Positions 9,501-12,500 of a stretch of 64,000 nucleotides of DNA are shown piece after piece. The first letter of the stretch is position 1. Every line of letters starts with the position of its first letter. Source of the stretch: Antennarius striatus (Eukaryota; Chordata; Actinopteri; Lophiiformes; Antennariidae); the NCBI RefSeq assembly GCF_040054535.1, contig NC_090789.1, positions 6,738,697-6,802,696 on the forward strand, given 5' to 3'. The notes under the pieces are model-generated. The model made no database searches. It saw only the letters and a program-made list of their open reading frames with translations, and had not been told where the DNA came from. The position numbers and the translations under genes are program-made.

Positions 9501-12500
9501 GTACACGCAACTTCAATCTGTTCCTTGAATGAGCTTGTAACTCAAGCAACTCGTCACTCAAACAACATTTACCCATTTCAAATAACTAAAATCAATGTTA
9601 TTCATTCCAGTCTTGTAAAAAAGCACCAAAGCACTCAAAATTATGAGAAGCTTTTTCATCTCTTCGTTAATGCTTGTTCATAGCTTTGAAAGCTGCTGTC
9701 CTTTATAATTTGCAGAACAAAGCAATAGCCACACCGATCCAGGGAGTGTGGGACATGAGAAACAAGCAGTTCCACACTGGTATTGAGATCAAAGTGTGGG
9801 CCATCGCCTGCTTTGCACCACAGAGGCAGTGCACTGAACTCCTGCTGAAGTAAGTGCAGTGTTCTTACTTCTATTGTCTCTATTTTTAACGCGGTGTTAG
9901 TTTTTCTGTCAATTGTCACTACGTCATGATTAACATATTAGTAGCCCTAGATCACTAATTTTTGTACTTTTAACTTTTTTTAAATGTCAGTCTTGAGGTG
10001 GATTTACGTCTCTAATCTCTGCCGTGGTGAGCCTCTCCACAGATTAACAATAAATAAATTCCTTCTCTGTCTCAGAGCTTTCACAGATCAGTTGAGGAAA
10101 ATCTCTCGGGATGCAGGGATGCCCATCCAGGGTCAGCCATGCTTCTGTAAATATGCCCAAGGAGCAGACAGCGTGGAGCCCATGTTCAGACACCTCAAGT
10201 ACACCTACCAGGGTCTCCAGCTTGTGGTCGTCATCCTACCGGGGAAGACGCCAGTCTATGGTGAGGGATACATACAGTCTGTTTTTGTGTTATTGAGTAA
10301 CTTATTGATTTAGCTCCTGTTGGTGATGACATCAATTTTCAACAGTAATCAGTAATCCCATCTGATTCACAGATAATAATCATATTAAACTGGCTACATT
10401 TGGTCAGTTTTTATGGTTAATGTGATGCACTTGAACAATAGCTTTAAAGTTTTGGACCTGATTGTCCCTAATTATTTGGTGTTTCCTTCTTGTGTAGCTG
10501 AGGTGAAGCGGGTTGGTGATACGGTACTTGGAATGGCCACGCAGTGTGTGCAAGTGAAGAATGTTCAAAAGACAACACCCCAGACCCTCTCCAACCTCTG
10601 TCTCAAGATCAACGTCAAGCTGGGCGGCGTCAATAATATCTTGCTCCCACAGGGCAGGTCAGTGAAGATGCTGATTATTAGTTATTACCTCAGTAATTGT
10701 GAATATCTTTGTGATGTAACCCCCATCCAAATTTGTAGCATACTGCATATAACTTATTTTGGTGCTGAATTGTGTCTGTTTCGACACCCCAGGCCGCTGG
10801 TGTTCCAACAGCCAGTGATCTTCCTTGGTGCAGACGTGACTCATCCTCCTGCAGGAGATGGAAAAAAGCCTTCCATCGCTGCTGTAAGTAACACCATGCA
10901 AAATTAGCATCTACCCCTTGCAGCACAAGTAAATGAGGTGTATTCTAAGTGACAAAATCACACCAATTTACCGAGGACTTCCGCAGCACTTGAGAATTTT
11001 TCCTCTCTTTGTTTAATGTTGTGGCCACTGGCACATTAATTGTATGTCTGACTTCCAGCTGCTCCCAGAATCCACCAGGAACAGTAATTTTCAGTAAATT
11101 CCCACTTTATACTACCCACCAATCACAATGTTGCATGTAGATGAGGTTACTGTATCTGTCCCTCGTAGCCCAAATTCATCAAAGGTGCAGTTGGAGACTG
11201 GGGTGAAAATGATTATAATCATATTTCAAAAACTGTCTCCTCGTATTGCGAAACATATCACCTCTGAAACATTCAGGCCCCTGAAGCCCCGTTTGGTGCT
11301 GATTTGTTTGTTCCGTTCTTTTTCAGGTCGTTGGAAGTATGGATGCCCATCCCAGCAGATACTGTGCCACAGTCCGGGTACAGCAGCACCGTCAGGACAT
11401 CATCCAGGACCTGGCCACCATGGTGAGGGAGCTGCTCATCCAGTTCTACAAGTCCACCCGCTTTAAACCCACCAGAATCATCTACTACCGAGACGGTATC
11501 TCCGAGGGCCAGTTCAATCAGGTGATGCATATATCAGGGGTGATGGTCACGGAAGTGGTGTTGCTTTCAGGCGTTATTCTAATAAACTTGTGACTTGAAC
11601 GCACGCAGGTCCTTCAGCATGAGCTACTTGCGATCCGAGAGGCCTGCATAAAACTGGAGAAGGACTACCAGCCTGGAATCACCTTTGTGGTGGTGCAGAA
11701 GAGACACCACACAAGACTTTTCTGCACGGACAGAAATGAGAGGGTCAGTATTGGTATTTAGCTTTTTATCCAAATAAGGAAAAAATTCAACTAACATCTA
11801 CCATCTGTTATCTAAAAAAATCAAATTTTTAACACTAAACCTTGTATTTACAGGTCGGGAAGAGTGGCAACATTCCTGCAGGCACCACAGTGGACACCAA
11901 AATCACTCACCCATCAGAGTTTGACTTCTACCTTTGCAGTCACGCTGGCATTCAGGTAAGAGCTGCCTTGAAAGGACTAAAGTGACTGCAACTGTAATTC
12001 GCGTAGAATTTATCTTTTGTTTTATGGCAGAGGTGATCACACATTTTCAACGTGGGAGCTAATAATAAAATGATCAAGTTACTGACCATTAATTAGCTAC
12101 TTGTATTCTGTGTGTCCGGCTATGTGGAAAAACTCCTTAATCTCCGAGCAGAGCTCCTGAACTCTTAAAGAATTTCCCCTGGACTAACCCTTCTCACATC
12201 AGTGTGTAGCAACAACTCAGAGTGGTCGCAGCCTTTTCCAGATGGTCAACAAATACAGTATTTTCTACACTACAAGGTGCACTGGATTGTAAGGCTCACC
12301 TTTAATAAATTGTTCATTTTACAATTTCACATATAAGGCACACCGGATTATAAAGCGCACTGTAGGTTAATGAGAAAATTATAGGCTTTTTGGTGCGTAT
12401 AGCTCCGTATAGTGCTGAAAATACTGTGGTCATCTTTCAAGAGATCTGGCGCAAACAGCGATCTTGATCCATGATCTGTCATATTTTCGTAGATAATGCT

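What the first reader, a model, noticed from the sequence alone, without database searches (positions are those of the whole stretch)
11327..11521. Ago2 carries both teleost slicer-impairing substitutions
The glutamate finger of the PIWI tetrad is Asp (residue 648, GAC at 11396-11398; human E637), and the residue aligned to human F666 is Tyr (677, TAC at 11483-11485) within IIYYRDG. The other tetrad members D608, D680 and H818 are intact. Published work (Chen, Sive and Bartel, 2017) attributes weak RNAi in zebrafish and most teleosts to two such ancestral Ago2 changes. This window shows them in another fish, predicting poor siRNA slicing but normal miRNA repression.
Basis: partly seen in the sequence, partly recalled or inferred. 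Interest (0 to 1): 0.75.

Follow-up and report, generated by a model that had tools for sequence, protein, structure and literature searches.

The report
Fish Ago2 with weakened RNA slicer
This fish's Argonaute-2 gene carries the two amino-acid changes already blamed for poor RNA interference in most bony fish, so it is a clean further example of a known trait rather than a new one.

Summary
The window (G000:C14:6738697-6802696, a 548 Mb assembly) carries a complete ago2: 20 exons, 3526-13313, 870 aa, 794 of 855 aligned residues identical to human AGO2. The human E637 position is Asp (D648) and F666 is Tyr (Y677). D608, D680 and H818 are intact. These are the changes credited to Chen, Sive and Bartel 2017 (not held; recalled, and cited by held papers) for impaired Ago2 slicing in most teleosts.

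I added two tests from the same genome. First, four other Argonaute loci were found. Three keep Glu at that column, the fourth (Ago4) too by my placement of its insertion, and both ago3 copies keep the DEDH tetrad plus Phe. Second, the one exact genomic copy of miR-451, beside mir-144, sits in a hairpin with a G6-G36 mismatch, the feature said (recalled) to rescue miR-451 maturation by weakened fish Ago2.

Slicing was not measured and no other fish Ago2 could be aligned. The trait is published as clade-wide, so interest is low. The boldest open reading is that the two intact ago3 copies supply the remaining slicing.

The parts
3526..13313 (+). ago2 coding region, 20 exons, 2613 nt including stop, 870 aa
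   Evidence: All 19 introns GT-AG, no internal stop; best PDB match human AGO2, 1889 bits, against AGO1 1677, AGO3 1624 and AGO4 1609
11327..11521 (+). exon 16, PIWI domain, holding both substitutions
11396..11398 (+). D648 (GAC), human E637 column, the glutamate finger
   Evidence: codon GAG in ago1 and ago3a, GAA in ago3b, and GAG in ago4 if its insertion is placed before it
11483..11485 (+). Y677 (TAC), human F666 column
   Evidence: TTC (Phe) in ago1, ago3a and ago3b, TAT (Tyr) in ago4
10833..10835 (+). D608, tetrad residue (human D597), intact
11492..11494 (+). D680, tetrad residue (human D669), intact
13047..13049 (+). H818, tetrad residue (human H807), intact

Best explanation
This is the ordinary teleost ago2 gene. 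Its product binds small RNAs and represses targets as other Argonautes do, but its slicer centre is D-D-D-H instead of D-E-D-H, with Tyr for Phe three residues before the third tetrad residue. The one-carbon-shorter Asp cannot place its carboxylate on the second magnesium as Glu does, and the Tyr perturbs the same neighbourhood, so cleavage of fully paired targets should be slow while seed-based repression is unaffected. The well-known precursor that needs Ago2 cutting, pre-miR-451, has a G-G mismatch in its seed stem that is reported (recalled) to speed cutting, so miR-451 can still be made. Shown here: residues, gene structure, paralogue states, hairpin. Inferred: reduced slicing, intact miRNA function, rescue by the mismatch, descent from the single ancestral event.
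For: Residues and exon structure. Among the five Argonaute loci found in this genome the Glu is lost in Ago2, the Ago4 state resting on placement of an insertion. mir-144/mir-451 cluster with G6 opposite G36. E637 is described as typically coordinating the second active-site Mg in human AGO2 (PMC11893014, passage). Zebrafish lack efficient AGO2 slicing through two point substitutions (PMC11811051, passage). Sterlet keeps the ancestral residues while most teleosts do not (PMC7765534, section 3.7 and Figure 14 legend).
Against: No activity data. E to D and F to Y are conservative, and Tyr occurs at this column in fish and human Ago4, though Ago4 has lost other tetrad residues. Two ago3 copies have an intact DEDH tetrad with Phe, so the animal may still slice by another route. 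The two changes are not unique in kind: five further residues depart in Ago2 alone.
Confidence: 0.88

Rival explanations
1. The fish is not slicer-poor as an animal: Ago3a and Ago3b, both with DEDH and Phe, do the slicing that Ago2 no longer does, possibly only with shortened guides.
For: Both ago3 copies keep D, E, F, D, H and give tblastn segments from about residue 25 or 33 to 870 (no splice model was built for them). Human AGO3 becomes a slicer with certain guides trimmed to 13-14 nt (PMC10772731, section 10).
Against: Human AGO3 is a much weaker slicer than AGO2 with ~22-nt guides (same section), and both fish copies keep the stretch that makes AGO3 nine residues longer there than AGO1 and AGO2. 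RNAi is described as not effective in teleosts (PMC12669676, introduction passage), which fits no strong slicer.
Confidence: 0.15
2. The two substitutions are neutral in this protein because other changes compensate, and slicing is near normal.
For: 61 of 855 aligned residues differ from human, including V671I two residues after the third tetrad residue.
Against: The two changes were reported to impair the zebrafish enzyme (recalled; cited in PMC11811051). The genome also carries the G-G mismatched mir-451, expected where Ago2 slicing is weak.
Confidence: 0.07
3. Assembly or base-calling error at one or both codons.
For: No reads or cDNA were available.
Against: Two separate codons, 87 bases apart, both give exactly the residues expected for a teleost in an exon that is otherwise open and correctly spliced. 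The copy in the assembly is the same sequence and so no independent check.
Confidence: 0.01

Closest known systems
Slicing-impaired teleost Ago2 (Chen, Sive and Bartel 2017, zebrafish and most teleosts; recalled)
   Same: Asp at the human E637 column, Tyr at the F666 column, other tetrad members intact, and a G-G mismatched pre-miR-451 in the same genome
Human AGO2 (PDB 11zj_A and others)
   Same: 794 of 855 aligned residues, D597, D669 and H807
   Different: E637D, F666Y, S387N among 61 differences
Human AGO4 (PDB 6oon)
   Same: Tyr at the F666 column
   Different: AGO4 has Gly at the third tetrad position and a 10-residue insertion near the Glu; fish ago4 also has Arg at the fourth

Membership tests
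Vertebrate Ago2 | Full-length match closest to AGO2 rather than AGO1, AGO3 or AGO4 | tested here: met
   1889 against 1677, 1624 and 1609 bits
Slicing-impaired teleost Ago2 | Asp in place of the catalytic Glu | tested here: met
   D648
Slicing-impaired teleost Ago2 | Tyr in place of Phe at the human F666 column | tested here: met
   Y677
Slicing-impaired teleost Ago2 | Remaining tetrad D, D, H intact | tested here: met
   D608, D680, H818
Slicing-impaired teleost Ago2 | G-G mismatch in the pre-miR-451 seed stem of the same species | tested here: met
   G6 opposite G36 at the one exact genomic copy of the mature sequence; inexact copies were not sought
Slicing-impaired teleost Ago2 | Measured weak slicing, raised by reverting the residues | not testable with these tools
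   needs biochemistry
Slicing-impaired teleost Ago2 | Descent from the same ancestral substitutions (phylogeny with gar, sturgeon, zebrafish) | not tested
   no other fish Ago2 sequence was fetched; sterlet state only as text in PMC7765534
Ago3-type conditional slicer (fish ago3a, ago3b) | DEDH tetrad with Phe, and the longer AGO3 N-terminal stretch | tested here: met
Ago3-type conditional slicer (fish ago3a, ago3b) | Cleavage when loaded with 13-14-nt guides | not testable with these tools
   described for human AGO3 (PMC10772731, section 10)

The most novel reading that the evidence does not exclude
Slicing in this fish has moved from Ago2 to a duplicated, tetrad-intact pair, Ago3a and Ago3b, activated by shortened guides, while Ago2 was detuned under selection rather than by drift. 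The hint for selection is that Ago1, whose tetrad ends in Arg, keeps Glu and Phe in an exon 65 of 65 identical to human AGO1, so those residues look constrained even without slicing, yet Ago2 changed both.
Probability: 0.12. Interest if true: 0.6.

Novelty: already known. Interest (0 to 1): 0.22.

Why it matters
It confirms for one more fish that siRNA or shRNA knockdown through Ago2 should be expected to work poorly. It shows that both halves of the published story, weakened Ago2 and a mismatched mir-451, sit together in one genome. It also points to a testable question: what, if anything, slices RNA in such fish. The two intact ago3 copies are the candidates.

Tried and rejected
Paralogue mix-up (that the gene is ago3 or ago4) was rejected by full-length scores and by finding four other Argonaute loci elsewhere in the genome. 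A second ago2 copy was sought with two exons only: exon 16 gave 6 matches, which are 5 loci because ago4 is split by an intron; a 66-residue piece of exon 19 gave the same 5 loci plus one weak match at C22, 36% identity with a stop, not examined. No further ago2 copy appeared in these two searches.

The column script read Asp for Ago4 at the E637 column because a BLAST segment ran into the ago4 insertion. Reading across the ago4 splice gives RQD, insertion, then SQEVIQDL, so I place Glu there because the following residues match. The alignment of Ago4 to AGO2 itself was not printed, and the alternative placement would give Asp in fish Ago4 (human AGO4 has Glu at both places).

The window held no Rfam match at gathering score and no tRNA. 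Of 27 ORFs of 100 aa or more I scanned 10 with Pfam: 2 pieces in the first 1.3 kb matched Dlx domains, 8 others at 15.9-54.7 kb matched nothing. 279 stop-to-stop pieces picked were not scanned as a set, so genes downstream of ago2 are unknown. No structure was predicted, since I judged that a model would not resolve the effect of Glu to Asp.

Eight paper searches were run. For the G-G mismatch in fish pre-miR-451, one search listed 20 of 106 papers and one search listed 10 of 28; for that question I opened passages of PMC11100590, PMC13228530, PMC9303283 and PMC8423273, and none of the passages shown states it. Three further papers of the list were opened or listed for other questions (PMC7765534, PMC11811051 opened). 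I did not open the rest. PMC8423273 uses the phrase for siRNAs in plants. PMC8048513 only lists Chen 2017 in its references. (R315, H316) was read as a listing only. The repeat count in the genome did not complete.

Full report
What is there. The window is G000:C14:6738697-6802696 of a 548 Mb, 42-contig assembly with no species name. A complete ago2 lies on the + strand, 20 coding exons from 3526 to 13313, 2613 nt with the stop, 870 residues, all 19 introns GT-AG. Against solved human Argonautes the full protein scores 1889 bits with AGO2, 1677 with AGO1, 1624 with AGO3 and 1609 with AGO4. Over 855 aligned residues 794 are identical to human AGO2.

The finding. 11327-11521 is exon 16. It differs from human AGO2 at 6 of 65 residues; two are E to D at fish 648 (GAC 11396-11398) and F to Y at fish 677 (TAC 11483-11485). 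D608, D680 and H818 are intact.

Within-genome control. Searching the genome with exon 16 gave 6 matches that form 5 loci; a piece of exon 19 gave the same 5 plus one weak hit. The locus at C9:20264064 has E, F, RDG and R, and its exon is 65 of 65 identical to human AGO1. The loci at C9:20285778 and C14:17925303 (minus strand) have E, F, RDG and H; their N-terminal stretch matches human AGO3 best, 70 residues where AGO1 and AGO2 have 61, so I call them ago3a and ago3b. The locus at C14:13673691 matches human AGO4 best and has Tyr, RGG and R; human AGO4 also has Tyr and RGG. Its Glu follows a 10-residue insertion, and assigning that Glu to the E637 column is my placement; the other placement gives Asp. 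On my placement the Glu is lost in Ago2 alone (1 of 5 loci; 2 of 5 on the other), the Tyr is shared with Ago4 (2 of 5), and the full DEDH tetrad with Phe is seen only in the two Ago3 loci. Splice models were not built for the paralogues.

How special are the two sites. The printed list shows 52 of the 61 differences (those after residue 30). At six of the 52, Ago2 departs from human while all four paralogues agree with human: fish 64, 388, 420, 648, 682 and 716 (five by the script; 648 is added by my Ago4 placement). So the two changes are not the only unusual ones, but 648 is the only tetrad position that differs from human.

miR-451. The exact mature miR-451 sequence occurs once in the genome, at C13:5680748 (inexact copies were not sought), 97 bases after the start of miR-144-3p; mir-144 is recognised by Rfam at 96.8 bits, while no Rfam family matched the mir-451 hairpin itself at gathering score. 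The 42-nt stretch starting with the mature sequence folds with guide G6 facing G36, flanked by C5-G37 and U7-A35. I recall from the abstract of Chen et al. 2017 that a G-G mismatch in the fish precursor enhances its cleavage by weakened Ago2, and I recall that the human precursor has C there; neither statement was seen in a held text.

Literature. Chen et al. 2017 is not held. PMC7765534 (12 of 15 passages, section 3.7, Figure 14 legend) says Ago2 slicing is impaired in most fish by mutations in the ancestor of most teleosts, and that sterlet keeps the ancestral motif. PMC11811051 (12 of 14 passages) reports that a nearly fully matched target was not efficiently cleaved in zebrafish and cites two teleost-specific substitutions. 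[quoted passage not shown] the term F666 was not found in its text. PMC10772731 (passages and section 10) covers AGO3 activation by trimmed guides and miR-451; the passages seen do not mention the fish substitutions, and one argues that miR-451 in all vertebrates shows how critical AGO2 slicing was, which the mismatch story qualifies.

Mechanism. Shown: sequence states. Inferred: Asp in place of Glu fails to hold the second metal well, Tyr worsens it, slicing is slow, and seed-based repression continues. The miR-451 hairpin supports this because it carries the reported compensating mismatch. Against: no activity was measured, both changes are conservative, and intact Ago3 proteins could slice.

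Verdict. Observation confirmed, interpretation supported, already known as a clade-wide teleost trait. The added value is the within-genome control, the mir-451 state and the two intact ago3 copies.

Noticed in passing
[quoted passage not shown] Ago4 was not covered there. The ancestral state is unknown.
   Followed up: partly
5011-5539 and 7132-7550: Introns 2 and 5 of ago2 hold inverted copies of one repeat (arms of 155 nt at 88%, 70 nt at 83%, and others) that flank exons 3-5. The transcript could fold there into a long imperfect hairpin, a layout that might favour a circular RNA of exons 3-5.
   Followed up: no
12249-12394: Further related repeat pieces lie in intron 18; genome copy number could not be obtained.
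   Followed up: no
285-1292, minus strand: A Distal-less homeobox gene (DLL_N and Homeodomain by Pfam; Dlx5-like by recall) has its apparent start codon about 2.2 kb from the ago2 start codon, head to head.
   Followed up: partly
L008 and L010 (C9:20260001-20290000): ago1 and ago3a lie in tandem on the same strand, their exon-16 matches 21.7 kb apart; ago2, ago4 and ago3b are all on contig C14.
   Followed up: partly
L023 (G000:C22:12459247-12459429, minus): A weak match to the Ago2 H818 exon, 36% identity with one in-frame TAA; perhaps a Piwi-type gene read across an intron, not examined.
   Followed up: no
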